From Geminocystis sp. NIES-3709 (GTDB lineage: Bacteria > Cyanobacteriota > Cyanobacteriia > Cyanobacteriales > Cyanobacteriaceae), in contig NZ_AP014821.1 in assembly GCF_001548115.1 (NCBI RefSeq), positions 2,483,262 to 2,547,261 on the forward strand: DNA of 64,000 bases, read 5' to 3'. The position numbers and the translations under genes were made by a program. The notes beneath the pieces are model-generated. The model saw only the letters and a list, made by a program, of their open reading frames with translations. It was not told where the DNA came from and did not search any database. Of this stretch, positions 1,575-47,990 are shown in pieces; position 1 is the stretch's first letter; each line of letters opens with the position of its first letter.

Positions 1575-3350
1575 ATGAATAGCCTATTTGAGTATCTGGA
1601 AACAAAAGAAATTTCGAGGAATAAATCTGACACAAAAATAACTTGGTATGCTAAATATAAAGATAGTGGAGATGAGTTGGTTATCAAACAAATTATTTGT
1701 TCTAAAGAAAATTATGTCTTAAGTGGTGTTGAGGCTTATAAAAAAAAGATTCAATATTTTCAGGCTAAAAATCACCCTTCAATTATTCGTTATTTAGGAG
1801 TATTTTCTACTTCAGATAGTTTTTTTATTTTGAGAGATTATAAAAAAGGTGTTATACCATTATCTAAATTAGACAAAATTAGATTAGAAGAAATTAAAAG
1901 TATTGCTATTAAAATTTTATCTGTATTAAAAGAGTTTCAGGAATCCAGTCCTCCGATGATTCATCAAAATATTAAACCAGAAAATATATTTATTGACAAT
2001 AAACTCAATATCTATTTAACGGATTTTGGTTTTTCCGAAGTTAGTACTCAAAGTATGTATGATTTTTCTGTAGATAATATTTTTGAAGGTACTCCCGGAT
2101 TTATTGCACCAGAACAATTTATTCGTCCGACAAAAGCCTCTGATATGTACGGATTAGGGGCTACATTAATTTGTTTAATTACCAAGACAAAATCTGAAAA
2201 TTTATCATTATTATTAGATAAAAAAAATAAATATAAAATTAATTTTGAACACTTAACTAAGGGATTACGTCCTGATTTTGTTAGGTGGTTAGAAAAAATG
2301 GTGGCAACGGATCAAAGAGAGCGTTTTCGTACTGCTGGTGAAGCATTAGAAGCATTACTTCCTATTTATGTGGTGCGTTATCCTGAAGTAAAATTAAGTG
2401 TTAAAAGTTTAGAAATTAAAATCAATCAATTAGGTGAAAAAGAAACTGTAACGATCGAAGTTTCTAATCCGATCGATAATACTTTATTAAGGGGAAAATG
2501 GGTGTTAGCTAGAAATATTAATGATGGTTATGACAGAGGACAAATTCACGGTTGGCTTTCTATTTTACCGAATAAATTTGCTAATAATCATGTCTTTTGT
2601 ACTTTAAAAGTCTCCAGTGAAAAATTAATGGCTGATCAGATTTATGAACGATATTTAGTACTCAAAAATAATAGCCGTTGTGAAAAAATTAAAATACCTT
2701 TAAAAATTATTACTCCTCCTCTTTCTTTAAATATTAAAAAACCGCCTTATTTTTATATTGCTTCAATATTTTTATCTTCTGTTATAATTTCAATATTTGG
2801 AGGTATCAGTGGTATTCTAGCCGGAAATATCGGGGGATTAGTAGGAAGTCTTGCGGCTTGGTTTTTTGCTGGAATTATAGCTTCTTTTGCTTTAACAAGT
2901 ACTTATATGAGTAATGATACTTGGTCAAATTCCCGTCTTTCGGGGGGAATTATTGGCAGTTTCTTATTGTGGGGTATGGGATTGACTCTTGTTTTATTAG
3001 CTTTAAGAAGATTTGGTTCTCCCGATTTAAGTAAAATTGCGATCGCACAGTTTATTGTATTAATTACAGCAGGTGTTTTAGCTATTTTTAGTCATTTAGT
3101 ATTAGAAAAATTTAAAGAAATTGGATTTAGTAAATTAATCTCTTTTGCTTGTATTTTATCATCAATAATTAGTGGTATTTTATTAGGAATACAAATTTTA
3201 TTAGGATTCAAAAATATCTATATTTTTATACCTTTTATGATGAGTAATATTGTATTTTTCAGTGTGTTATTTTATCCTTTGTGGAAAGAATTAAAGTTAA
3301 TTAATGAATATAAAAAGGCAGCTAAAGAAAATCAATTAATTAAACCTTAA
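1575..3350 (+). CDS. Membrane-anchored serine/threonine kinase-like protein, probable pseudokinase
   Basis: 591 residues. Residues about 20-265 have the protein-kinase fold: VIK lysine K38, a DFG motif at 150-152, and a GTPGFIAPEQ activation segment. The catalytic loop, normally HRD, reads HQN (residues 130-132; the Asn codon is AAT), so the catalytic aspartate is absent, and no clear Gly-rich loop is visible. Residues about 268-385 look like an all-beta domain. From about 390 to 575 there are roughly six hydrophobic segments, so the kinase-like domain is probably cytoplasmic and tethered to the membrane. Members of the family phosphorylate Ser/Thr of partner proteins; this one may instead bind or scaffold. 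There are no operon partners: the downstream gene is convergent. The start ATG lacks a clear Shine-Dalgarno, which is common in cyanobacteria. Confidence 0.8.
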   Translation: MNSLFEYLETKEISRNKSDTKITWYAKYKDSGDELVIKQIICSKENYVLSGVEAYKKKIQYFQAKNHPSIIRYLGVFSTSDSFFILRDYKKGVIPLSKLDKIRLEEIKSIAIKILSVLKEFQESSPPMIHQNIKPENIFIDNKLNIYLTDFGFSEVSTQSMYDFSVDNIFEGTPGFIAPEQFIRPTKASDMYGLGATLICLITKTKSENLSLLLDKKNKYKINFEHLTKGLRPDFVRWLEKMVATDQRERFRTAGEALEALLPIYVVRYPEVKLSVKSLEIKINQLGEKETVTIEVSNPIDNTLLRGKWVLARNINDGYDRGQIHGWLSILPNKFANNHVFCTLKVSSEKLMADQIYERYLVLKNNSRCEKIKIPLKIITPPLSLNIKKPPYFYIASIFLSSVIISIFGGISGILAGNIGGLVGSLAAWFFAGIIASFALTSTYMSNDTWSNSRLSGGIIGSFLLWGMGLTLVLLALRRFGSPDLSKIAIAQFIVLITAGVLAIFSHLVLEKFKEIGFSKLISFACILSSIISGILLGIQILLGFKNIYIFIPFMMSNIVFFSVLFYPLWKELKLINEYKKAAKENQLIKP

Positions 3351-7709: not shown

Positions 7710-8175
7710 TGAGTATAAATGCTTATTATGATTATTATTAAATAACTAATCTTAACTTAAATTTACATAATATGCGATAGTTTAAAAAAAGTAAACAAAT
7801 TGTTACACTTTTAATTTATAAATTAGCCCGTCAGAATAACACATTTACGTCCTTTTCCTTTTTATCTCCTGAGAAAAATAAAAATTTTAAAATTTATTTG
7901 TGTTAAAAATCTCATTCACGGATATATCTTCATAATTTTTTCTATTTATTAACATTTTACAAATTAGAATTGTTAATCTTACAAAAACTTGTAAACCTTG
8001 ATTCTAAAAGGTTTTTTCATCAAATTCAAGTAGTTTAGAATCATTGTCTTATCGTTTTTCAAAAAAAATGTTAAAAAAAGTAACAATTTAGACAGAACAC
8101 TTGACAAAGTTGCAGTTTTAATATCCATATGTTAGGTTAATTATTATCTGACGGATTAATTGAGGAGTAAAGCTA
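7710..8175. other. Divergent intergenic region upstream of nblA
   Basis: 466 bp of AT-rich DNA between the small minus-strand gene and nblA. It should carry the nblA promoter. A TTGACA hexamer lies at 8101-8106, but there is no convincing -10 box at 16-18 bp, and no GTA-N8-TAC NtcA site was found by eye. Nothing else is supported. Confidence 0.4.
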
Positions 8176-8343
8176 ATGGAAACACCTTCTGCATTAAGTT
8201 TAGAACAACAATTTAAGTTGGAAGTTCTAAAAGATCAAGTTAAAAAGTTAAGTCAAGAACAAGCTCAAGAATATTTAATTGAGGTATTTCGTCAAATGAT
8301 GGTGAAAGATAACTTAATGAAACAATTATTCAAAAATGCTTAA
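8176..8343 (+). CDS. nblA: Phycobilisome degradation protein NblA
   Basis: 55 residues. The sequence has the NblA hallmarks: LSLEQQFKLEVLK near the N-terminus, a central QVKKLSQEQAQEYL, and the C-terminal RQMMVKDNLMKQL. NblA is a small helical adaptor that binds phycobiliproteins and delivers phycobilisomes to Clp protease during nitrogen or other nutrient starvation. A good Shine-Dalgarno (GAGGAG, 8162-8167) precedes the ATG by 8 nt. Transcription is normally starvation-induced; no operator could be assigned. clpP and clpX also lie in this window, about 49 kb away. Confidence 0.93.
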   Translation: METPSALSLEQQFKLEVLKDQVKKLSQEQAQEYLIEVFRQMMVKDNLMKQLFKNA

Positions 8344-8743
8344 TCTTGCTTAGACGTTGTTGTAGAGTTGATCATCATTGTCTTTTTTCCGCAATGAGAT
8401 TCTTTGTTAACTTTTACATAAATTTAATTTCCCTTATTTCTCGTCTCGACAACGTCTATCAATCAAAGACAACTAAGTGTTTCTTACTCTTAGAGTATCG
8501 TCTCGATCGAACTATTCTATACTTGCTAAAATATAGTTTGATGTTGCAAAATAACTTTTGGTTTTTGGATATTTTCCCCCAGTTAATAAGTAAGTGGGCA
8601 GAATTAATTGTATAATTATAACATTAAAATAAATTTAATAAAATCAAAAAGTAATATACAAAAGTTTTATTTATATTTAAAAATAATTAATGTAGCTTAA
8701 AATCTGCTAAAAATATGAAAAATAAGTAAATCAAGGATAAAAA
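8344..8743. other. 400-bp region between nblA and the IS630 transposase
   Basis: It contains a perfect 10-bp inverted repeat, TAGACGTTGT (8351-8360) and ACAACGTCTA (8449-8458), starting 7 nt after the nblA stop. The spacing of 88 bp is long for a terminator, so it could be a small element's termini or a structured 3' UTR. Around 8509-8537 there is a weaker AACTAT...ATAGTT hairpin. The 89-codon frame at 8346-8615 is judged spurious. The left end of the IS should lie before 8744, but no inverted repeat was found to fix it. Confidence 0.5.
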
Positions 8744-9742
8744 ATGCGATTTGTTACCAGATTAGCTCCAGAAACACAACAGTTATTAAAGACTATTGAA
8801 CAAAAAAGTAAATACTATCAAGTTAGACATCGAGCAAAATCGATTTTGTTAAGTTATCAAGGTTATAAAATTACTCAAATAATGTTAATATTAAATATTA
8901 GTAGAAATACAATTTATAATTGGCTTAATAATTGGGAAAAAAATGGTTTAAATGGATTATATAGCTTGAAGGGAAGAGGAAGAAAATCAACTTTAAATGA
9001 GCAACAAGAATTAAAAGTAAAAGAATGGATAAAATCTCATCCAAAAACCTTAAAGATAGTTCAAGAAAAAATAGAAAATGAGTGGGAGATAAAAATAAGC
9101 AAAGATACGATAAAAAGATTAGCAAAAAAAAAGGGCATGGGGTGGTATCGGTTCAAGAAAAGGGTAAAAGGGGAAGTATGCCCTGAATTATACCAACAAA
9201 AAAAGAGACAATTAGAGCAACTAAAAAGAGCAGAAAATGAAGGAAAAATAGATATATATTATGGTGATGAAAGTGGATTTAGTTTAGTACCTTGTTTACC
9301 TTATGGATGGCAAGAAAAAGGGAGAAAAATAGAAAGAGAAAGTAGCCTAAGTAAAAGATTAAATGTGTTAGGATTTATGAAAAAAAATAATGAGTTAGAA
9401 AGCTATGTATTTGAGTCATCAATCAATAGTGATGTCGTGATAGCTTGTATAGATAACTTGAGTAAAAAAATAAAGAAGGAAACAGTATTAGTAATGGATA
9501 ATGCCTCGATTCACCAAAATAAAAAATTCTGGAATAAAGAAGAAGAATGGGAAAAAAAAGGATTAAAAATATTCTTTCTACCACCCTATTCACCACAATT
9601 AAACAAAATAGAAATACTGTGGAGATTTATGAAATATAAATGGTTAGAGAACTCCTGTTATAAAAGTTATTTAGATTTAGTAAAAGGAGTAGAAAATATT
9701 CTTATAAACTTTGGTTCAAAATATACAATTAATTTTGCCTAG
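8744..9742 (+). mobile_element. IS630-type transposase, apparently intact
   Basis: 332 residues in one frame. The N-terminal ~110 residues hold a helix-turn-helix (ISRNTIYNWLNNW) and a second winged-helix-like stretch. The C-terminal half is a DDE catalytic domain with D175 (YYGDESGF), D252 (VMDNASIH) and E290 (PPYSPQLNKIE), which are diagnostic of the IS630/Tc1 superfamily. These elements insert at TA dinucleotides. Flanking TA is abundant but I could not find matching terminal inverted repeats by eye, so the limits given are those of the gene. No frameshift or stop was seen, so it could be active. Confidence 0.88.
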
Positions 9743-9848
9743 GTACTTATTATTCCCTTTACGAAGTGCAATTTTGACAGTCAAATATAAATTTTAAGAT
9801 TCCTTTAGGATTATTTGTAATGATGAAACGAGAAAAAGTCCAAATTTT

Positions 9849-10511
9849 CTATTCTCTATATTTTGTCAAAGAAACTGTTGCGACTCCAAGAGGTTTTAAT
9901 TTTGCATTAACTAATACTTTTATTCCTTCATCTACAGTTGTACCAGTGGTATAAATATCATCTATCATAAGAATTTCTTGAGTTTTGTTGATTTTCTGAT
10001 AATCTTTACCGATACGAAAGGCTTTATCTATATTTGCTTTTTTTTGTTGAGGAGTTAAGCTAAACATAGCCTCTGTGTTTTTTACTCTTATTAATAATTC
10101 TGTTTTGATTGCATAGCCTGTTATATGGCAAAAACTTTGGGCAATTAATTCAGCTTGATTGAATCCTCTCATTTTCAATTTTTCAGAATGTAACGGTATT
10201 GGTATGACGGTTAATTTTGGATAAGTTTTTTTATTTCCCGATTGTAACCACGCCTCTCCTAACCATCTACCAAATAATTCGCCTATTTCTCTATTTTTAT
10301 CATATTTGAAGGCAGCGATCGATCTTTTTAAATAATCGTCATATTTACCCCATGAAAATAGTAAATAATTTTGACGACTAAATTGTTTATAATTGGTGAG
10401 TTGACAACATCGTAATTTTTGTTCACAATATCGACAAATAATATCATCAGTCGATCGTTGACAAAGAGGACAATTTGATTTAAGAAATAAAGATAAAATA
10501 TTTTTCAACAT
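9849..10511 (-). CDS. comF: ComF family phosphoribosyltransferase-like protein
   Basis: 220 residues. The N-terminus has a four-cysteine zinc ribbon (CPLCQRS...CRYC). The C-terminal half is a type I phosphoribosyltransferase fold with the PRPP loop ILMIDDIYTTGTT. ComF proteins are linked to DNA uptake during natural transformation, where they may act on incoming single-stranded DNA; in cyanobacteria comF is among the genes required for competence. It is a single gene, divergent from the next one by 45 bp. Confidence 0.87.
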   Translation of the reverse strand: MLKNILSLFLKSNCPLCQRSTDDIICRYCEQKLRCCQLTNYKQFSRQNYLLFSWGKYDDYLKRSIAAFKYDKNREIGELFGRWLGEAWLQSGNKKTYPKLTVIPIPLHSEKLKMRGFNQAELIAQSFCHITGYAIKTELLIRVKNTEAMFSLTPQQKKANIDKAFRIGKDYQKINKTQEILMIDDIYTTGTTVDEGIKVLVNAKLKPLGVATVSLTKYRE

Positions 10512-10556
10512 TCATTTAATTTACTTAGTAATTTTAGTGTTTAAATAACTTAAAAA

Positions 10557-11006
10557 ATGGAAATAAAATTTAGAGAATTTAACCCTTTTGATATATGGTT
10601 TTGGATAGAATTTGATCATGTACCATCAGAAATGGAAAAACAATATATAGAAGAATTATTTAATTCATGGTTTTATTTAGGTAAATTAGGAGGATTTAAT
10701 GCAGAAAATTTACAAATACAAGACTTAGGTATTGATATTAGTTATATGGATTATGACCATGATTTAGCAGAAAATTCGATGATGTCTCCTATGCACAATA
10801 TGGGAGAATTTGAATTTTTAAGTAATTGGGGAAGATGTTGGTTTGATTTAGGTACTAGCGATTTAATCGGTATCGATATTTTAATTAATGCACTTAGGGA
10901 ATTAGGCAAAGAATATGTCGGAATTAGTCAGTTTATTATTGGAGGAGAAAATGAGGACTGGCGGATAGATAAAAAAGAAAATGATGGTTTTTCAGAGGAA
11001 TATTAG
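10557..11006 (+). CDS. DUF3531-type conserved protein
   Basis: 149 residues, acidic, soluble. It starts with MEIKFREFNPFDIWFWIEF, which I associate with the DUF3531 family found in cyanobacteria and plant plastids. It has further conserved-looking aromatic and acidic stretches (YMDYDHDL, WGRCWFDLGTSD). The function is unknown. It is transcribed away from comF with no clear operon partner. Family assignment is from memory of the N-terminal motif and should be treated as probable. Confidence 0.65.
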   Translation: MEIKFREFNPFDIWFWIEFDHVPSEMEKQYIEELFNSWFYLGKLGGFNAENLQIQDLGIDISYMDYDHDLAENSMMSPMHNMGEFEFLSNWGRCWFDLGTSDLIGIDILINALRELGKEYVGISQFIIGGENEDWRIDKKENDGFSEEY

Positions 11007-11160
11007 CCTTCAATTTTAGTAACTTTTTATTTCCCTAATCTTCTATAGTAGTCTTATTTGAATTGTGTAGAAAAAATGCTGTTAAAAGATATTAGGTGTA
11101 AAAAAATAAAAGATTTTGCATTTTATAATTAACATTTAATCTATCACAAATCATTTAAGA

Positions 11161-11403
11161 TTACTGTTGTTTCGTCATTTGTCCTATTTTTTTGATCAGC
11201 CAACTAAATAACGCCCCTGTAAATAAAATGCCAATGGCAGGGTTAAATACTGGTGTCCATAATTGATACCATATATCCCATCCCAAAGGTATTCCCATAG
11301 AACGTCCTATAAGTGCGATCGCAAACCAAAAAAAGGCGATAATAACTAAGAAAACATCAGCTACTAAAAAACGATCGAGCCACGTTAATAACTTTTCTTT
11401 CAT
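11161..11403 (-). CDS. Small two-helix membrane protein
   Basis: 80 residues with two hydrophobic segments (about 14-34 and 54-72) joined by a conserved-looking GIPLGWDIWYQLWTPVFNPAIG loop. It has a basic C-terminus (KKIGQMTKQQ). The Trp/Pro-rich loop is typical of small membrane proteins conserved across cyanobacteria. No function is known to me. It is monocistronic. Confidence 0.65.
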   Translation of the reverse strand: MKEKLLTWLDRFLVADVFLVIIAFFWFAIALIGRSMGIPLGWDIWYQLWTPVFNPAIGILFTGALFSWLIKKIGQMTKQQ

Positions 11404-11855
11404 AAAGGAAAATAATATATTTCAATCAAAATAATTTTATCTTAAATCAATACCTTCGCCAAAAATTAAAAATAAAATCGATTTTCATCGAACTCATTTG
11501 GGACTTTTTTGAAAAGACTTGACAAAAATACCTTCTTTTAATACATTCAAATTACTTGATTCATTCTAAGGCATCTCTACCGTCGGATCTAATCTAAATA
11601 AACTTTTACTTGTTATTGTTTAGCAGTGGGTAAAGATTTATCTATACATTTGTTGTGTTATTAAGTGTATTTTATTTGATACATATAGGTGCTAAAAATT
11701 AAACGCAATATTATAATACGGAAAAATTTTTTTGATTTGTTAATTAATTTTGCATAAATTCCAAAAGTCAGACTGATAATTATATAGAGAAGAAATATAT
11801 TTACTTTCCATCTCGATCAAACTAAGTATTTTTACTTATCTAGGGAGTTTTTAAT
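11404..11855. other. Divergent intergenic region before the GTPase pair
   Basis: 452 bp with no gene. It should hold promoters for the small membrane protein (leftward) and the GTPase operon (rightward). AGGGAG at 11842-11847 is a clear ribosome binding site for the first GTPase. No repeat or operator could be assigned. Confidence 0.5.
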
Positions 11856-14273
11856 ATGCTAGACAACATCGATTTATCCCAAACCTTCAATATCGCCATT
11901 ATGGGAAGGGGTAACACGGGGAAAAGTTCGTTAATGAATGCTTTATTAAAATTAAGTCGTAGGGAAGCCTTAGAAGTCACCAAAGTAGGAATACAAACTC
12001 ACCTTACAAAAGATTTTGTCATTCAAAAATTTTTTAATGATGATGTTTATTTAATTGATACTCCTCCTATTCATAATGAATATTTTGAAATTCATAAAAT
12101 TGTCAATATAATCAATGATATAGACTTAATAATTCTTGTGATTGACGGTTATCCAGTGTATGGACACAAATACATTTTTCAAAAACTAAGTATCTATAAG
12201 TCTAATATATTTGTTGTTTTAAATGGTATGGATAAATGGGATAATTGCTTTTTTGATTGGATAAATTATACAGTATCTCAATGGGCTAATTATCTTAATG
12301 TTGATAAAATTTATTTGACTTGCACAAGAGGTTATAATCCCACAGAAAATAGTCCAAAAATGGACATTCGAGGAGTTGATTTATTGCGTCAAGATATTAA
12401 CAATTTTATTAACGAAAAAATTAGACAAAAACAAACAAATGTTTTAGAGCAATTATCTGTAAAAGTTGAGATAAATAATAAGAAGAAGGAAATACTAAAG
12501 TTAAAATATCCGAAAAAAACAATTTATCCTTTAGAGTTTCAATGGGCTTTAAAATCTTGTACAAATACTGCCCATAAATCTTATGAAATTACTTTAAAAT
12601 ATAGCAATACAATTAAGTACATAATACAAAATCTCATAAGTAGTTTAGATAAAAAAATCTCTATATCAAATCAATATAAAAATAAAGAGCTAGAAAAATC
12701 ATTTGATAAAGTTATCTCAGCTATTAAACAGATTTTGAATAAAGATATTGACGAATTAAAATTATCTTTAGCTAAGAAAAAACAAAATTTAGAAGATTAT
12801 AGTATTGTTTTATTTGGACGTACGAGGGCAGGAAAAAGCACTATTCGAGAAGCCTTAACTAATGGAGATGGTAACACGATCGGTAAAGGAGGGCAACGCA
12901 CCACCAGAGATGTCCACGAATATAGATGGAATGATCTACGATTGATTGATACCCCCGGTATTGAAGCCTATGGGGGAGAAAAAGACACCGATAAGGCGAT
13001 TAACAAAGTGGATGAAGCGGATATGGTATTATTCCTTACTAGCGATGATTCTGTGCAACCCGGAGAATTTGAAGAAATGGCAAGGCTAACTAAAATAAAT
13101 AAGCCTTTTATTGTTCTTTTAAATGTTAAAGCTAAATTAGAAACAGAAGCACAATTAAATCGATTTTTAACCAAGCCAGAAAAAACTTTTAATGAGGAAA
13201 GATTATCAGGACATCATCATCATATTCAAAAATATGTTAGTGAACATTTGCATATTGATCAAGTTCAAATTATAGATATTCAAGCAAGGGCAGGATTTTT
13301 AAGTAATTTACCTGAATATAAACAATATAAATCTGAATTATGGAAATTAAGTCAATTAGATCAGGTTTATTCAGTAATAGAACAAGACATTTATAATAAT
13401 GGCAATGAAAGACGAGCTTCTACTTTTTTTGATGGGACAAAAAAATTTATTGAAAAAATAAAAAACCAATTATCAAATATTCAAAAAGATATTGATTCTC
13501 AGCTTAATTTATTGCAAATAAAAGAAAAAGAAGTTAAAAAATTATTTGCTGATTTTATGAAAGATACTGATAGAAAAATTGACAGTAAAATAAAGATTAT
13601 ATTTAGTCAATTTAAACAAGAAATTCCAGCTTTTATTGAATATTCAGTATCAAACAGAGATGCTAAAGAACAATGGAAAGCTAAAGAAAATAGATTAAAA
13701 AATAAACTAGAAGAATCTATCAAAATAATATTTCAAGCAACTATAAAAGAATTGAAAGAAAAATTGTCAGAATTTGAACAAGAATATAGTTATGATACCG
13801 AGAATATCAAATTTAATATTAATTTTGATAACTTTGATAAAGGAATATTTGGAAATGTACTTAAAGGTTTAGGTGTAATATTAGGAGCAATAGGTGCAGG
13901 AGTAATTATTTTCAATCCTGCTGCATGGGTTATTAGTGCAGGTTTCGCCGTTGGAAATATGATTTTTAATTTCTTTTCTGATAAGGTTAAAGATGATGAA
14001 AAAAGAAAATTTAATCAACAAAAAGAAAATACTAAAAATGAGATACTTATAAAAGTAAATAATCAAGAAAAAGAATTAATTAGTAAACTAAAAAAAGAAG
14101 TGAAATCAAGACTACAAGAAATTGAAAAGGATATTTTATCTCCTTTAGAATTGTCTAGGAAAGAACTATCTTTTATTAATCAACAAATTTGCATAGCTGA
14201 ACAGGAAATAAAAACACAACTTAATAACTTAAAAAATGATTATGAGCTTATCCAACAAAGTTTCAATAACTAA
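11856..14273 (+). CDS. Double-GTPase dynamin-like protein with C-terminal membrane hairpin
   Basis: 805 residues. The first G domain has G1 GRGNTGKS (17-24), a G3 reading DTPP (68-71) in place of DxxG, and a G4-like LNGMD. The second has G1 GRTRAGKS (321-328), an intact G3 DTPG (365-368) and LNVKAK in the G4 position. After it come about 300 residues of Lys/Glu-rich helix, interrupted by a glycine-rich hydrophobic hairpin (about 672-710, ILGAIGAGV...NPAAWVISAG). Tandem G domains plus helical stalk and membrane hairpin recall bacterial dynamin-like proteins, which bind and remodel membranes. It lies 37 nt upstream of a second such GTPase and is probably in one operon with it. Function is not established. 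Confidence 0.75.
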   Translation: MLDNIDLSQTFNIAIMGRGNTGKSSLMNALLKLSRREALEVTKVGIQTHLTKDFVIQKFFNDDVYLIDTPPIHNEYFEIHKIVNIINDIDLIILVIDGYPVYGHKYIFQKLSIYKSNIFVVLNGMDKWDNCFFDWINYTVSQWANYLNVDKIYLTCTRGYNPTENSPKMDIRGVDLLRQDINNFINEKIRQKQTNVLEQLSVKVEINNKKKEILKLKYPKKTIYPLEFQWALKSCTNTAHKSYEITLKYSNTIKYIIQNLISSLDKKISISNQYKNKELEKSFDKVISAIKQILNKDIDELKLSLAKKKQNLEDYSIVLFGRTRAGKSTIREALTNGDGNTIGKGGQRTTRDVHEYRWNDLRLIDTPGIEAYGGEKDTDKAINKVDEADMVLFLTSDDSVQPGEFEEMARLTKINKPFIVLLNVKAKLETEAQLNRFLTKPEKTFNEERLSGHHHHIQKYVSEHLHIDQVQIIDIQARAGFLSNLPEYKQYKSELWKLSQLDQVYSVIEQDIYNNGNERRASTFFDGTKKFIEKIKNQLSNIQKDIDSQLNLLQIKEKEVKKLFADFMKDTDRKIDSKIKIIFSQFKQEIPAFIEYSVSNRDAKEQWKAKENRLKNKLEESIKIIFQATIKELKEKLSEFEQEYSYDTENIKFNINFDNFDKGIFGNVLKGLGVILGAIGAGVIIFNPAAWVISAGFAVGNMIFNFFSDKVKDDEKRKFNQQKENTKNEILIKVNNQEKELISKLKKEVKSRLQEIEKDILSPLELSRKELSFINQQICIAEQEIKTQLNNLKNDYELIQQSFNN

Positions 14274-14310
14274 TAATAAATCTATTGCAAAATTAAAGGT
14301 AATTTAAACT

Positions 14311-15942
14311 ATGTCTAATTTAAAATTTACACAACAATCTGAAACTGTTAATAATTTGGTTAAATCCAGTTTAGCTATGCTCAATCGTTATTCATATCCT
14401 GAAGTTGAAATTTTAGTAGAAGATTTTAATAATTTTTGGCATGAGCATCAACAACAACCTAAATTAACTATTTCTTTTATTGGACAATATAATGCCGGAA
14501 AATCTACTTTAATTAAATCATTAACAGGAGATTCTGCTATTCTTATTAGCCCTGAAATTTGCACCGATAAAGTAACAGAATATAGTTGGAATGATGTTTT
14601 ATTAATTGATACCCCCGGAATTTATGCTGGAAGAAATGATCACGATGAAATCACCCTTAAAAAAATTTCTCGTTCAGATTTATTAGTTTTTGTTATTCCA
14701 AATGAATTATTTAATCCTCAAGGTGCTGAGTTTTTTAAACGAGTGGCAAATGATATGCAAAGAGTTGGACAAATGATGTTAGTTATTAATAAAATGAGTC
14801 GTGAAACAGGAGAAAAAAATGAGCTTTTAAAAAGTATTAAAGAAGTGATTAAACCTCATCTTCATCAAAATTTTTATACTTGTTTTATTGATGCTAATTC
14901 TTATTTAGAAGTTCGTTACGAAAATGATGAAGATGAAAAAGAGTTTTTGCTAGAAGAATCTAATTTTAATAATTTTTTGAATTCTTTAGAAACACTTATT
15001 GAGCAAAATAAATTATCAGCAAAATTAATTACACCTTTACATAAATTGTCTGATTTATTAACAATATTATCCAATCAATTTAATCAGGAAGAAAATTTAA
15101 TTCCTAAGTTATTAGAGTTATTGAGAAGAAAAGAAAATATTTTAAAAGCATCTCAAACTAGAGCTAAAAATATTTATATTTCTGCTTTAGGTCAATTAGA
15201 GCATGAAATAATTATGATTGGTGATAAAATAGATGGAAACCATAATGAAAATGAAATTAATGAGGAAATTAGTAATTGTGATCAAGAGATAAGAATATTA
15301 ACGGAAACAATTATTAATAATATAAATAATGATTTAAAATCAGAACTTGATGATCTTCAAAATAAATTAAAAGAATTAGAAGATTCTCCATTAGGTAGAA
15401 CGATCGAATTAGAATTAGAAGAAATGAAGAAAAATAAAGCCTATAATCATAAAAACTTAAACTCTAATTATACAGGAAAAGTTGCCTCTAAAACCCTTCA
15501 TAGTGTGGGAAGTTTTGCATCTAACGCAACGAGAAATTTTGTTTATGATGTTGGAAAAACATTAGGAGTCAAATTTAAACCTTGGGGTGCATTTAACATG
15601 GCTAAAAATATTAGAGTTGCTGGTTCTATTTTTGCCTTTGCTGGTGTTGCATTTGATGTGTTTATGGCGTTTAAAGAAGAAGGTGATCGGAATGAATATG
15701 AAAAAGAATTACAAAAAGGAAGAAATGAGGTAAGACAAAATTATGAGAATTTAGCAGAAGAAATCAGCAATAATTATAAAGCAAGTATTACTGATTCTTT
15801 AGATTTTTATAATCAGGAAATATTTGACTTAACTTTAAAAAGAAATGAGTTGATAAAAAATGATCAAACAAAAGAGAAAATGAAAAAAGAAATTAAGGAA
15901 CAATCAGTCAAAATTAAACATAAAATTGCAGAATTAATCTGA
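14311..15942 (+). CDS. Dynamin-like GTPase, partner of the preceding gene
   Basis: 543 residues. G1 GQYNAGKS (58-65), G2 Thr in the CTDKVTEYSW segment, G3 DTPG (100-103) and G4 NKMS are all recognisable, so this G domain looks active. The rest is long coiled helix with a hydrophobic stretch at about 436-453 (AGSIFAFAGVAFDVFMAF), fitting a membrane-binding paddle or hairpin. Bacterial dynamin-like proteins often occur as adjacent unequal pairs that act as hetero-oligomers at membranes; a role in membrane stress or phage defence is an inference. A collapsed transposase follows directly. Confidence 0.75.
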   Translation: MSNLKFTQQSETVNNLVKSSLAMLNRYSYPEVEILVEDFNNFWHEHQQQPKLTISFIGQYNAGKSTLIKSLTGDSAILISPEICTDKVTEYSWNDVLLIDTPGIYAGRNDHDEITLKKISRSDLLVFVIPNELFNPQGAEFFKRVANDMQRVGQMMLVINKMSRETGEKNELLKSIKEVIKPHLHQNFYTCFIDANSYLEVRYENDEDEKEFLLEESNFNNFLNSLETLIEQNKLSAKLITPLHKLSDLLTILSNQFNQEENLIPKLLELLRRKENILKASQTRAKNIYISALGQLEHEIIMIGDKIDGNHNENEINEEISNCDQEIRILTETIINNINNDLKSELDDLQNKLKELEDSPLGRTIELELEEMKKNKAYNHKNLNSNYTGKVASKTLHSVGSFASNATRNFVYDVGKTLGVKFKPWGAFNMAKNIRVAGSIFAFAGVAFDVFMAFKEEGDRNEYEKELQKGRNEVRQNYENLAEEISNNYKASITDSLDFYNQEIFDLTLKRNELIKNDQTKEKMKKEIKEQSVKIKHKIAELI

Positions 15943-45194: not shown

Positions 45195-45857
45195 TTAAAG
45201 TTTTATTGAAATATGAATTAATTGTTCTTCTGTTTTAGTAATAGTTGATGGAAATAAATTCGTTTCAAAATTCAATGTTTGTTGATATTTTATAAATGCT
45301 GTATTGTAAAAATTTTGTAAGATAAATTTCATAAAAACATTAGGAGTAAGAGGGGAAGAAACTGGAATACGACAGTTTTTAAATTGACCTAAAGTTAAAT
45401 GACATTTCGGATGATATATTTCACTAAAATTTTTGGGATCATAATCAAATCTAATTGGTGTAGGTAAAATATCCTTAGCAATTATATCTGCATAAATCTC
45501 GTCATCTTCATAAATCTCTGGTTCATTATGAAAAGACTCTAAAAAAGGTGAGGGGAAAAATGCTAATCTATGAGAAATTAATTGATTATTTTGAAAAGTA
45601 TACAAAATTTGTATTAAAGCACCATCTAACAATTTAAAATTAAAGTTTCTATGTTTGTTTAGTTCTTCATATATATACTGATAAGAAATATTCTTTAGAG
45701 CAATGGATAAATCAAGCATATTAGAATAACCGATAATGATTTGATTATTGCTAGCTTTTTGTTGAGACGGATAATTTTGATCATCACATAGTCCTACTTC
45801 AATTAATTTAGAAGTTATATTCTGAACTTCTTTAAAAATATTGTTACAAGTAATCAT
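45195..45857 (-). CDS. DUF2290-type protein, partner of the helicase gene
   Basis: 220 residues, soluble. The C-terminal half carries IYHPKCHLTLGQFKNCRIPVSSPLTP and FMKFILQNFY, which I associate with the DUF2290 family. No catalytic motif is apparent apart from conserved-looking His and Cys in that stretch. The gene starts 3 bp after the helicase stop, so the two form one transcription unit. Helicase + DUF2290 pairs are of unknown function; the company of a toxin-antitoxin pair suggests a defence role, which is an inference. Confidence 0.7.
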   Translation of the reverse strand: MITCNNIFKEVQNITSKLIEVGLCDDQNYPSQQKASNNQIIIGYSNMLDLSIALKNISYQYIYEELNKHRNFNFKLLDGALIQILYTFQNNQLISHRLAFFPSPFLESFHNEPEIYEDDEIYADIIAKDILPTPIRFDYDPKNFSEIYHPKCHLTLGQFKNCRIPVSSPLTPNVFMKFILQNFYNTAFIKYQQTLNFETNLFPSTITKTEEQLIHISIKL

Positions 45858-45860
45858 TTG

Positions 45861-47990
45861 TTAAAAAACATTTTTAAATTTTTCGATTAATTCTGGTGAT
45901 AAATCATCCTTATTTATTTCACCTTTTTCTACCGATTCAAGAATACTTTTTAAATCTCTTTCTACTTTGATTACAGTTTTTTGCTTGGGAGAAGAAATAT
46001 CCCTATTTACTAATTTTAATTGTTCTCGTTGTGATGCAGTTGGGTATTTAAAATTTAACGTAAAATTATTTTCTTTTATCCTGTCAAATTCTTCCTCTAA
46101 ATATTTCATATCTGAACCATATCCAATTACTCTTAACCATGCTTTACTTCTTGTCATTGCAGTAAAAAGTATATTTCTTTTTTTGACGAGTTGATTTCCA
46201 GCAAAACATTCTTGAGCATTAATTAAATAAATCATAGCGGCTTCATTTCCTTTAGCCCTGAAAATACTTGTAAAAATTATTGCGTCATCCTGAAAAAAAG
46301 TATCTCTTGAACTTGTAACACCAGCAATATTAGAGTTGATTCGTTGCTGAAAAAGTAAATCTCTTGCTTTTCCTACCTTATTTCTTAACGTGGTTGCTTC
46401 TGGATGAATGACCATAATATCACTACATTTAAGTTCATCTTCTTCTAAATTAGTTTTTATTTGGCTTACAAGCCATTCAATTTGCTCTTGATTATTATTA
46501 AATGTTTTAAACTGAATTAAATCTTCAATGAGAGAATGAGACTCTAAAAAAGTAGGGCTAGTTTTTTCTTTTCTTGCCAAATGTGCATTTTGTCCTTCTT
46601 GCAAACCTTCATTTGATATATTTTCATAACCTATCTCAAACCATAATTCTTTCTGATCAAACATCGAAATCAAACCTTTTTCTCTATAAATTCCAAAACC
46701 TAAAGCATGAGCCGAAGTTAATATGGGTCGAGAATTACGATAACAGGTATCTAAAATAATATCTTGTTGGGGCTTCCCTTTAACATTTTCCAGCCTAACT
46801 TGCGGATTACCATGAATATCAGTACCAAATAAAAATTCGGGTGATTTCATAGACATCTCATTTAAGTTTTGTAGTTCATCATAAGCATACACAAGACGTT
46901 TAGGTTTTTTGAGAATACCATAACAAAGTTTAATAAAATATTCTGAAAGGTCTTGAGCTTCATCTATTAAAATTACGTCATAGTATTCTTGAAAATCATT
47001 AACTTGGTTTAATGCTTTTTGACACACTACTTCAAACTCATTTTCATGACTGTAGGTAATTGATTTTGCCGAATTAAAATCTAAATATTCGACATTGTGT
47101 TTTTGACAAAATTGATAATATATTCCATTTTCTTTGGGACTTCCCCATGAATGAATAACTTTAACTTTTTCCCAATTTGGTTCTCTGTTAGTTTTTTCAA
47201 AAGTAAAACGATTTATTAAATCTTTAAATTGATCTTTTAATGAGCGAGTATAAAAGGTAACTGCTATATCTAAATCAGGATTTGTTGCATGAAGATAAGC
47301 AACTTTTAACGCTAAGACAATGGTTTTTCCTGAACCTGCCAAGCCTCTAATTCTTTGTACACCTTCTACTGTTTCAATTACTGCACGACTTTGATCTCGA
47401 TCTAAATTTGCGATCGAATCTTCTAAATGTTTTAACTTTGTACCCCTTGAATTTTCTTTTTTGACATAATTTCGAGAACGACTTTTGCGAATAGTTGTTA
47501 TATCTTCTATTACTGAATTTAAAACATTAAAATAATTATTTTTAGTCCATTTTTTTGTTTCGTCGTCTATAAAAGTTTGTAAATCATTCTCATTGATAAG
47601 AATAGGATAATCTTCTGAAATATTGTCTGGCTTTTTTTGCCATGCAGGAGCATAGGTAACAACAGAAATTGCGACCACTAAATTTCTTCTTTCATTTAAG
47701 TCTTTATGTAACTTCAGTTTTGACTCCATTTTTGTATAACAGTCATCCTGAATTGCTTCAATGTCAATATTATGATTCACTCCCTCAACTATATGAAAAA
47801 TAATAATTCCATGTTGTTTAGATACCAACAACGCATCAATAGGAAATCCTCCTTGAGAAGTTCCAATAATCGGATAAGCAATATATAACCTTCCCTCAAT
47901 ATCACTTATATTCTCGAAATAGTTAGCCAACTTTTCGGAAGAATTGGGCTTATTTGATTTCCCTCGAATAATATCAACCATAGTTGTCAA
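45861..47990 (-). CDS. Superfamily 1 helicase with N-terminal nuclease-like domain
   Basis: 709 residues. Residues about 25-90 look like a NERD or PD-(D/E)xK-type nuclease fold (YIAYPIIGTSQGGFPIDALLV, GIIIFHIVEG), but the usual E-x-K is not intact. The helicase core has Walker A GLAGSGKT (216-223), DEAQD Walker B, a CYRNSRPI motif IV region and, near the C-terminus, FTSIFRAKGNEAAMIYLIN and NILFTAMTRSKAWLRVIGYG, the UvrD/Rep-type motifs V and VI. It would unwind DNA or RNA using ATP. Its only partner is the DUF2290 gene, 3 bp downstream. The pair lies between chlH and a chlH remnant. Confidence 0.82.
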   Translation of the reverse strand: MTTMVDIIRGKSNKPNSSEKLANYFENISDIEGRLYIAYPIIGTSQGGFPIDALLVSKQHGIIIFHIVEGVNHNIDIEAIQDDCYTKMESKLKLHKDLNERRNLVVAISVVTYAPAWQKKPDNISEDYPILINENDLQTFIDDETKKWTKNNYFNVLNSVIEDITTIRKSRSRNYVKKENSRGTKLKHLEDSIANLDRDQSRAVIETVEGVQRIRGLAGSGKTIVLALKVAYLHATNPDLDIAVTFYTRSLKDQFKDLINRFTFEKTNREPNWEKVKVIHSWGSPKENGIYYQFCQKHNVEYLDFNSAKSITYSHENEFEVVCQKALNQVNDFQEYYDVILIDEAQDLSEYFIKLCYGILKKPKRLVYAYDELQNLNEMSMKSPEFLFGTDIHGNPQVRLENVKGKPQQDIILDTCYRNSRPILTSAHALGFGIYREKGLISMFDQKELWFEIGYENISNEGLQEGQNAHLARKEKTSPTFLESHSLIEDLIQFKTFNNNQEQIEWLVSQIKTNLEEDELKCSDIMVIHPEATTLRNKVGKARDLLFQQRINSNIAGVTSSRDTFFQDDAIIFTSIFRAKGNEAAMIYLINAQECFAGNQLVKKRNILFTAMTRSKAWLRVIGYGSDMKYLEEEFDRIKENNFTLNFKYPTASQREQLKLVNRDISSPKQKTVIKVERDLKSILESVEKGEINKDDLSPELIEKFKNVF

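What the first reader, a model, noticed from the sequence alone, without database searches (positions are those of the whole stretch)
11856..15942. Adjacent dynamin-like GTPases with three G domains, flanked by transposase genes
Seen: 805- and 543-residue proteins, 37 bp apart, with clear G1 motifs (three in total), long helical stalks and glycine-rich hydrophobic hairpins. An IS630 transposase lies about 2.1 kb to the left and a collapsed transposase 86 bp to the right. Known: bacterial dynamin-like proteins often come in unequal adjacent pairs and act on membranes; some take part in phage defence. Inference: a membrane-surveillance or defence module acquired horizontally. The double-G-domain partner is unusual.
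Basis: partly seen in the sequence, partly recalled or inferred. Interest (0 to 1): 0.7.

Follow-up and report, generated by a model that had tools for sequence, protein, structure and literature searches.

The report
Defence-type dynamin pair with extra GTPase-like domain
Two neighbouring genes in a cyanobacterium encode a known kind of membrane-acting dynamin pair, probably an anti-virus system, but one partner has gained a second GTPase-like domain that looks catalytically dead and that strains seem to swap like a cassette.

Summary
In detail: both ORFs, the 37 bp gap and three G1 motifs are there. The pair is LeoBC (805 aa) plus LeoA (543 aa), the two-gene dynamin system in PADLOC; models of both match dynamin folds.

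It occurs in 4 of 15 held genomes of the window's family and was seen in 0 of 80 named LeoBC loci, a few of them truncated, whose N-termini carry a TerB-like module, another module, or none. The extra domain (residues 6-189) derives from stand-alone cyanobacterial GTPases, but all four fused copies lost the G3 glycine and the G4 lysine. So only two of the three G domains look functional.

dS indicates that the pair moved between genera; neither transposase explains it. The N-terminal domain recombined separately from the core: two trees conflict at full support. Best reading: an Eleos-type membrane-acting defence pair whose N-terminus is an exchangeable pseudo-GTPase regulatory or sensing module. 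Anti-phage function is untested here.

The parts
11856..14273 (+). LeoBC-type dynamin-like protein, 805 aa, with extra N-terminal GTPase-like domain
   Evidence: PADLOC LeoBC 1.1e-108 over residues 237-793; Foldseek top hits BDLP 2j68, IniA 6j72, LeoA 4aur
11871..12422 (+). N-terminal pseudo-GTPase domain, residues 6-189, related to stand-alone cyanobacterial GTPases of mostly 377-473 aa
   Evidence: best stand-alone identity 47% (G586); 13 stand-alone relatives in a 388-genome order sample
11904..11927 (+). intact G1/P-loop GRGNTGKS of the N-terminal domain
12057..12068 (+). degenerate G3: DTPP in place of DxxG
   Evidence: DTPP in 3 and DTPT in 1 of the 4 fused copies; DSPG in 10 of 13 stand-alone relatives
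12222..12233 (+). degenerate G4: NGMD in place of NKxD
   Evidence: Lys kept in 0 of 4 fused copies, 13 of 13 stand-alone relatives
12798..13301 (+). LeoBC core G domain, residues 315-482 (G1 GRTRAGKS 321-328, G3 DTPG 365-368, G4 position NVKA 423-426)
   Evidence: model pLDDT mostly about 90; motif counts over 44 rows
13857..13988 (+). Gly-rich hydrophobic hairpin (putative membrane paddle) of LeoBC, residues about 668-711
   Evidence: sequence read by eye; 677-711 is low confidence in the model
14311..15942 (+). LeoA-type dynamin-like protein, 543 aa
   Evidence: PADLOC LeoA 2.5e-109 over residues 4-541; VIA-align Z 20.9 to mitofusin-1 5gom over model residues 2-543, 278 aligned, rmsd 4.4
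14482..14505 (+). G1 GQYNAGKS of LeoA
15493..15675 (+). hydrophobic tip segment of LeoA, residues about 395-455
   Evidence: sequence read by eye; low pLDDT 412-456
8584..9752 (+). IS630-like element (transposase 8744-9742; 39-nt inverted repeats, 82% complementary); separate insertion, not part of the system
   Evidence: inverted repeats; flanks contiguous in relatives L085 and L087
16223..16612 (+). fragment of an IS4-family transposase; not part of the system
   Evidence: NF049925, 3.8e-6, below its cut-off

Best explanation
The locus is a LeoBC-LeoA dynamin pair of the kind called Eleos/Dynamins in defence catalogues. Shown by computation: the two genes form an operon-type pair with dynamin folds; their nearest kin include loci beside known defence genes; dS points to transfer between genera. 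Inferred: the two proteins assemble as a hetero-oligomer through their G domains and stalks and put their Gly-rich paddles into the cell membrane. On phage infection they cluster at and remodel or seal the membrane, which delays lysis or stops phage release. Shown by computation: the N-terminus carries a domain kin to stand-alone GTPases with a hydrophobic C-terminal half, which is absent here; it keeps its P-loop, lost the G3 glycine and G4 lysine, and recombined apart from the core. Inferred: it no longer works as a GTP switch and serves as a regulatory or recognition module that decides when the pair is activated, a role that TerB-like or other modules may fill in relatives.
For: Family profiles; folds; a LeoA-like gene downstream of LeoBC in 67 of 80 named loci, where 73 of the 80 have more than 600 nt of room after the LeoBC ORF (BLAST at 1e-10). 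Core tree: the 4 fused copies form one clade (100/100), sister to 15 rows including L115 Rossellomorea vietnamensis. PADLOC hits beside leo: Avs4, TmtA, PglZ, BrxL, type I RM, Old, ZorA; homologues of these in 8 of 80 loci, 6 of them among those 15. Transfer: G000-G009 dS 0.42 (leoBC) and 0.38 (leoA) against 2.04 (rnr) and 1.34 (smc). Degenerate motifs. Module swap: G011 and G008 share one locus, yet residues 45-190 are 39% identical (dS 0.79) while residues 300-500 are 98.5% identical (dS 0.016); rnr 0.17, DUF3531 0.24, smc 0.28. The N-domain tree groups G011 with G000 and G009 without G008 (100/100); the core tree joins G011 to G008 (100/100).
Against: No activity is tested here. I saw no defence island around the window or G009 copies: 2 neighbours of each were scanned; only the kinase at window 1575-3347 matched (mad6, PD-T4-6; generic kinase kinship) and the G009 ones did not. 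The defence neighbours were picked by eye from the 15 loci listed, so their rate is not unbiased, and the seven control stretches (0 hits) are not matched controls. E. coli LeoABC was tied to vesicle release, not phage defence (PMC4159319, passages). The structure model says nothing on the N-terminal domain (pLDDT under 50 in 18 of 22 ten-residue blocks up to residue 220). The module swap rests on four sequences, one of them a decayed copy. Strong conservation of the domain among the other three (89-91%) shows constraint, not rapid change.
Confidence: 0.58

Rival explanations
1. A housekeeping or stress-response membrane dynamin pair (thylakoid or envelope fusion, membrane repair, vesicle release), with no special role in defence. 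The N-terminal domain is an assembly domain like the N-terminal assembly domain of Campylobacter Cj-DLP1.
For: Cj-DLP1/2 need an N-terminal assembly domain and both partners for GTPase activity (PMC6104087, passages). E. coli leo deletions lower vesicle release (PMC4159319, passages). Dynamin-like proteins are common in cyanobacteria (PMC5827413, passages).
Against: Present in 4 of 15 family genomes, decayed in one of them (in-frame stop; IS1-type insertion), dS pattern of transfer, and kin beside defence genes. The N-domain difference between G011 and G008 is not matched by the part of LeoA left in G008, about 89-97% identical in DNA; the LeoA G domain itself is missing there, so this is only partial evidence against an N-domain-LeoA interface.
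Confidence: 0.27
2. The N-terminal domain is a working third GTPase with an unusual G3/G4, used as a nucleotide sensor that gates the dynamin core.
For: G1 is intact in 4 of 4 copies. Three copies from three genera are 89-91% identical in this domain with dN/dS of about 0.1-0.16, so it is under constraint. Non-canonical G4 motifs are also common in the LeoBC and LeoA cores.
Against: The G3 glycine, which in canonical GTPases contacts the gamma-phosphate (recalled), is Pro or Thr in 4 of 4 copies, and the G4 Lys is lost in 4 of 4; 11 of 13 stand-alone relatives keep the glycine (10 as DSPG, one as ESLG) and 13 of 13 the lysine.
Confidence: 0.12
3. A composite transposon or IS-borne cargo: the two transposases carried the pair in.
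For: An IS630 gene 2.1 kb left and an IS4-family fragment on the right.
Against: Different IS families. The IS630 insertion is separate: flanks at about 8070-8465 and 9858-11002 are contiguous in L085 and L087 without it. I recognised no IS630 or IS4 gene by eye in the ORF lists of the G009 and G011 stretches (not searched), and the IS in the G008 copy is IS1-type and disrupts leoA.
Confidence: 0.03

Closest known systems
LeoA/LeoBC pair (Eleos or 'Dynamins' in defence catalogues; L115 Rossellomorea vietnamensis NBRC 101237)
   Same: Two adjacent genes, same order; LeoBC core 38% and LeoA 39% identical to L115; sister clade in the core tree. That Bacillus vietnamensis was the tested exemplar is recalled (Millman et al. 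2022 is not held); PMC11811056 (passage) calls Eleos a dynamins-like defence system.
   Different: The R. vietnamensis LeoBC has no N-terminal module (9 residues ahead of the core); the window protein has one of about 220 residues, derived from a GTPase.
ETEC LeoA, LeoB, LeoC (PMC4159319, passages)
   Same: Second dynamin encoded upstream of LeoA; crystal structure 4aur is the third Foldseek hit of the LeoBC model
   Different: E. coli splits the partner into LeoC and LeoB; here it is one gene with an additional domain ahead of it
Campylobacter jejuni Cj-DLP1/Cj-DLP2 (PMC6104087, passages)
   Same: Unequal dynamin pair, one member with an extra N-terminal domain; matched by fold (5owv, 5oxf)
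   Different: The Cj-DLP1 N-terminal domain is a 119-aa assembly domain; the passages read do not call it a GTPase
Bacillus subtilis DynA (PMC8844932, abstract)
   Same: Two G domains in one dynamin protein (two fused DLPs, PMC6104087 passage); delays phage lysis
   Different: DynA is two whole dynamins fused; here a small GTPase-like domain precedes one dynamin

Membership tests
LeoA/LeoBC (Eleos) pair | LeoBC-family protein next to LeoA-family protein in one operon | tested here: met
   PADLOC LeoBC 1.1e-108 and LeoA 2.5e-109, 37 bp apart
LeoA/LeoBC (Eleos) pair | LeoBC profile covered end to end | tested here: met
   profile positions 16-596 of 601 on residues 237-793; the extra N-terminal domain lies outside the profile
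LeoA/LeoBC (Eleos) pair | protects against phages | not testable with these tools
   needs plaque assays
Dynamin superfamily | G domain, helical neck and stalk in dynamin arrangement | tested here: met
   LeoBC: 5yew_C Z 23.6 (322 aligned, rmsd 5.0, residues 230-802); LeoA: 5gom Z 20.9 (residues 2-543). Non-dynamin GTPases also score Z 17-20, but mostly on the G domain alone. Foldseek: BDLP, IniA, LeoA, SynDLP on top
Dynamin superfamily | GTP-driven membrane remodelling | not testable with these tools
   needs purified proteins
NCBIfam NF041922 LeoA/HP0731 family | score above curated cut-off 325 | tested here: not met
   P0002 scores 81.8
Era/Der type GTPases | score above curated cut-offs | tested here: not met
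   P0001: Der 65 of 306.7, Era 60.4 of 237; P0002: Era 45.9 of 237
Canonical GTPase domain (N-terminal domain) | G1, DxxG and NKxD motifs | tested here: not met
   G1 present; DTPP and NGMD in the window copy
Composite transposon | same IS type on both sides | tested here: not met
   IS630 on the left, IS4-family fragment on the right

The most novel reading that the evidence does not exclude
The N-terminal domain is a catalytically dead GTPase captured from a membrane-GTPase family and used as an exchangeable bait or sensor: phage factors (or infected-cell states) that act on the parental GTPase family engage the dead copy and trip the dynamin pair. Alleles of the domain are exchanged between genera under an arms race, as with integrated decoys of plant NLRs (comparison recalled). 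Each of the four genomes gave only the fused match at E 1e-12 (best 8 candidates scored), so a decoy of a present-day paralogue in the same cell is unlikely; the broader 'exchangeable pseudo-GTPase sensor' remains open.
Probability: 0.15. Interest if true: 0.75.

Novelty: new variant of a known kind. Interest (0 to 1): 0.5.

Why it matters
How bacterial dynamin pairs sense infection is, to my knowledge, not known. Relatives carry different modules (TerB-like, others, or none) at the same N-terminal position, and here a degenerate GTPase domain at that position recombined independently of the core. That points to the N-terminus as the part that may set the trigger, and it gives a natural allele pair (G011 and G008: same locus, near-identical core G domain, different N-domain) for a domain-swap test.

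Tried and rejected
Composite transposon as vehicle: rejected (different IS families; uninterrupted IS630 site in L085 and L087). A clean empty site for the pair: not obtained. DUF3531 and RNase R, which flank it here, do not map near each other in the family genomes searched, so the region is rearranged; different surroundings alone were not taken as proof of transfer. Phage origin: no match for either protein in 50,697 phage records, and none of 87 pattern matches in viral contigs was confirmed. Plasmids: 7 records match P0001, none over 80% of it. Promoter and terminator scans were near chance (38 promoter-like against 31.5, sd 6.0; 1 terminator-like against 1.2). Papers: no title or abstract start in the listings describes a GTPase-fused or TerB-fused LeoBC; that is a statement about those searches only.

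Near misses for 'double G elsewhere': L118 (Clostridium MAG) was listed with query residues 11-764, but its ORF has no extra domain (21 residues ahead of the core). L143, whose ORF reaches the contig end, has a second P-loop-like string (GRNKDGKT, residue 61) but no BLAST match to the window's N-domain. In one search only the two best candidates per genome were scored.

Rows dropped or unsure: 6 of 83 rows shorter than 400 aa left out of the core tree; L113 had no G1 in its ORF and was not classed; of the 25 loci with fewer than 50 residues ahead of the core at least L159 and L174 are truncated. The TerB-like class (41) is a BLAST single-linkage cluster; two of its members were given to Pfam: L160 matches TerB (3.1e-6, above its cut-off), L125 does not.

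dS caveat: NG86 values above 1 are near saturation, and DUF3531 gave no value for G000-G009. Third-position identity agrees (0.77-0.80 for leo, 0.48-0.53 for the three controls). For G000-G011 the contrast is weaker (leo 0.62-0.76; DUF3531 0.92, smc 1.15, rnr 1.78), and for G000-G008 DUF3531 (0.68) is below leoBC (0.85).
Full report
OBSERVATION. The two ORFs (11856-14273, 805 aa; 14311-15942, 543 aa) and their three G1 motifs are present as described, 37 bp apart. The window lies in a 4.43 Mb genome, 99.97% complete. The nearest named relatives of the first protein are mostly cyanobacterial, with some Bacillaceae.

IDENTITY. PADLOC assigns the first protein to LeoBC (1.1e-108, residues 237-793 on profile positions 16-596 of 601) and the second to LeoA (2.5e-109, residues 4-541). 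The NCBIfam LeoA/HP0731 model is matched only below its cut-off (81.8 of 325), so this is a distant LeoA. AlphaFold models (mean pLDDT 79.3 for LeoA, 72.9 for LeoBC) match dynamin folds. LeoA: mitofusin-1 5gom Z 20.9 over residues 2-543 (278 aligned, rmsd 4.4) and Cj-DLP 5oxf Z 18.4 (267 aligned, rmsd 4.3). LeoBC: mitofusin-1 5yew Z 23.6 over residues 230-802 (322 aligned, rmsd 5.0). Era, EF-Tu and similar GTPases score Z 17-20 as well, but mostly on the G domain alone. Foldseek on the LeoBC model puts BDLP, IniA, LeoA 4aur and SynDLP on top.

THE EXTRA DOMAIN. The LeoBC core begins near residue 226 of the window protein. In 80 named LeoBC loci (the best 80 of 146 confirmed) the stretch ahead of the core falls into a TerB-like cluster in 41, a second module in 10, a third in 2, one odd case (L143), fewer than 50 residues in 25, and one not classed. 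None matches the window's N-domain. In an even sample of 386 cyanobacteria, the matches that run the whole length of P0001 were the window's genome and two of the same family, out of 25 genomes with a match at 1e-15. Among the 15 held genomes of the family four have both the fused LeoBC and LeoA: G000, G008, G009, G011. Two of the eleven without are only 63-67% complete.

Residues 6-189 match stand-alone proteins, mostly 377-473 aa (13 in 388 genomes of the order; one, G437, broken by a stop), best at 47% identity (G586). In those proteins a hydrophobic C-terminal half follows; in the fused ones the LeoBC core follows instead. Motifs: G1 intact in 4 of 4 fused. G3 glycine in 0 of 4 fused (DTPP three times, DTPT once); stand-alone copies have DSPG in 10 of 13 and ESLG in one. 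G4 lysine in 0 of 4 fused (NGMD, NGID, NGMD, NQID) and in 13 of 13 stand-alone. I conclude (inference) that the domain is a pseudo-GTPase, or at most a nucleotide-binding domain without the normal switch. In the core G domains, G3 is D-x-P-G in 44 of 44 LeoBC rows and DTPG in 40 of 40 LeoA rows. G4 is unusual in both families: NVK- or NIK-type in at least 29 of 44 LeoBC rows (the listing shows the 12 commonest forms), and in LeoA NKMS in 26 of 40 with Asp in 2 of 40. That is a family trait and not a defect of the window copy.

HISTORY. In the core tree (77 rows) the fused copies are one clade (100/100), sister to 15 rows (98/94): eleven cyanobacteria with short N-terminal modules and four Bacillaceae/Paenibacillaceae without one, among them Rossellomorea vietnamensis NBRC 101237. 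I recall, but could not check, that this species supplied the experimentally tested Eleos/Dynamins system. Between the window genome and G009 (another genus) dS is 0.42 and 0.38 for leoBC and leoA but 2.04 for RNase R and 1.34 for SMC. That points to transfer after the genera split. Against G011 the contrast is weaker (leo 0.62-0.76; controls 0.92-1.78). The surroundings differ between the three genera. In G008 the pair is decaying: an in-frame TAA in leoBC and an IS1-type insertion where the 5' part of leoA should be.

CASSETTE EXCHANGE. G008 and G011 (one genus) hold the pair at the same locus; DNA identity is 89-99% per 100 bp over the 900 bp that end at the start of leoBC, and 84-86% just beyond. 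Inside leoBC, residues 300-500 are 98.5% identical (dS 0.016) and residues 500-805 are 75% (dS 0.24, like rnr 0.17, DUF3531 0.24 and smc 0.28), but residues 45-190 are 39% (dS 0.79). Decay cannot explain such a dS difference. Conversely, G011's N-domain is 90-91% identical to those of G009 and G000, with dS 0.35-0.37 against 0.63-0.93 in the rest of the protein. The trees conflict: the core tree joins G011 with G008 (100/100) and G000 with G009 (100/98); the N-domain tree groups G000, G009 and G011 without G008 (100/100). So the N-domain has recombined separately from the core. Residues 6-45 with the P-loop are alike in all four (85-93%); the part that differs is the switch and effector side.

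FUNCTION. LeoBC kin sit beside known defence genes. PADLOC matched 9 of 10 neighbour proteins from 6 loci that I picked by eye among 15 listed: Avs4 and TmtA (L109), PglZ and BrxL (L110), type I RM (L102, L115), Old (L115), ZorA (L125); the one from L149 had no match. Homologues of these nine occur in 8 of 80 loci, 6 of them among the 15 sister rows (L102, L103, L109, L110, L115, L117); other defence types were not counted. Near the G011 copy there are a WYL-domain protein upstream and a partial PADLOC 'Helicase' about 3.5 kb beyond leoA, among five G011 neighbours scanned; two G009 neighbours had no match. The window itself has a full-length Helicase + DUF2290 pair at 45198-47990, 29 kb away. 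B. subtilis DynA delays phage lysis (PMC8844932, abstract). E. coli LeoABC affects vesicle release, and no nucleotide binding or hydrolysis was seen for LeoA alone, which its authors suggest may reflect a need for LeoBC (PMC4159319, passages); [quoted passage not shown] From these the likely mechanism is a hetero-oligomer that acts on the cell membrane during infection, with the N-terminal module setting the trigger. The membrane step, the trigger and the antiviral effect are inferred.

VERDICT. A real and correctly described feature, and a new variant of a known kind. What is new is the captured, degenerate GTPase domain at the N-terminus and its separate recombination. No title or abstract start in the listings mentions it.

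Noticed in passing
window 45198-47990 (-): Adjacent DUF2290 protein (PADLOC 4.7e-104) and UvrD-like helicase (PADLOC Helicase, 1146.8 bits), both full length: a Helicase + DUF2290 pair, catalogued as a defence system, 29 kb from the leo pair.
   Followed up: partly
L038 (G008) 9233-13343: The leo pair of this relative is decaying: in-frame TAA in leoBC and an IS1-type transposase (PF03400, 1.6e-20) where the 5' part of leoA should be.
   Followed up: yes
L160:6440-8956 and the cluster of 41 N-termini: Many cyanobacterial and, by BLAST linkage, some Bacteroidota LeoBC proteins carry a TerB-like N-terminal module (Pfam TerB 3.1e-6 in L160). The 10 papers shown of 44 hold no 'TerB'.
   Followed up: partly
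LeoA alignment A4 and LeoBC alignment A3, G4 position: G4 is non-canonical in most rows of both families (LeoA: NKMS in 26 of 40, Asp in 2 of 40; LeoBC: NVK/NIK-type in at least 29 of 44), which may bear on guanine specificity or on nucleotide binding only in the hetero-oligomer.
   Followed up: partly
L045:7941-9113 and 12 other stand-alone GTPases: A family of cyanobacterial GTPases, mostly 377-473 aa, with a hydrophobic C-terminal half that had no significant Pfam match in the two scanned; three members (G541, G449, G548) also have a degenerate G3.
   Followed up: partly
L125:11055-12941: In Bacillus sp. ISL-41 a Zorya ZorA gene (7e-304) is the next listed ORF after the LeoBC-LeoA pair.
   Followed up: no
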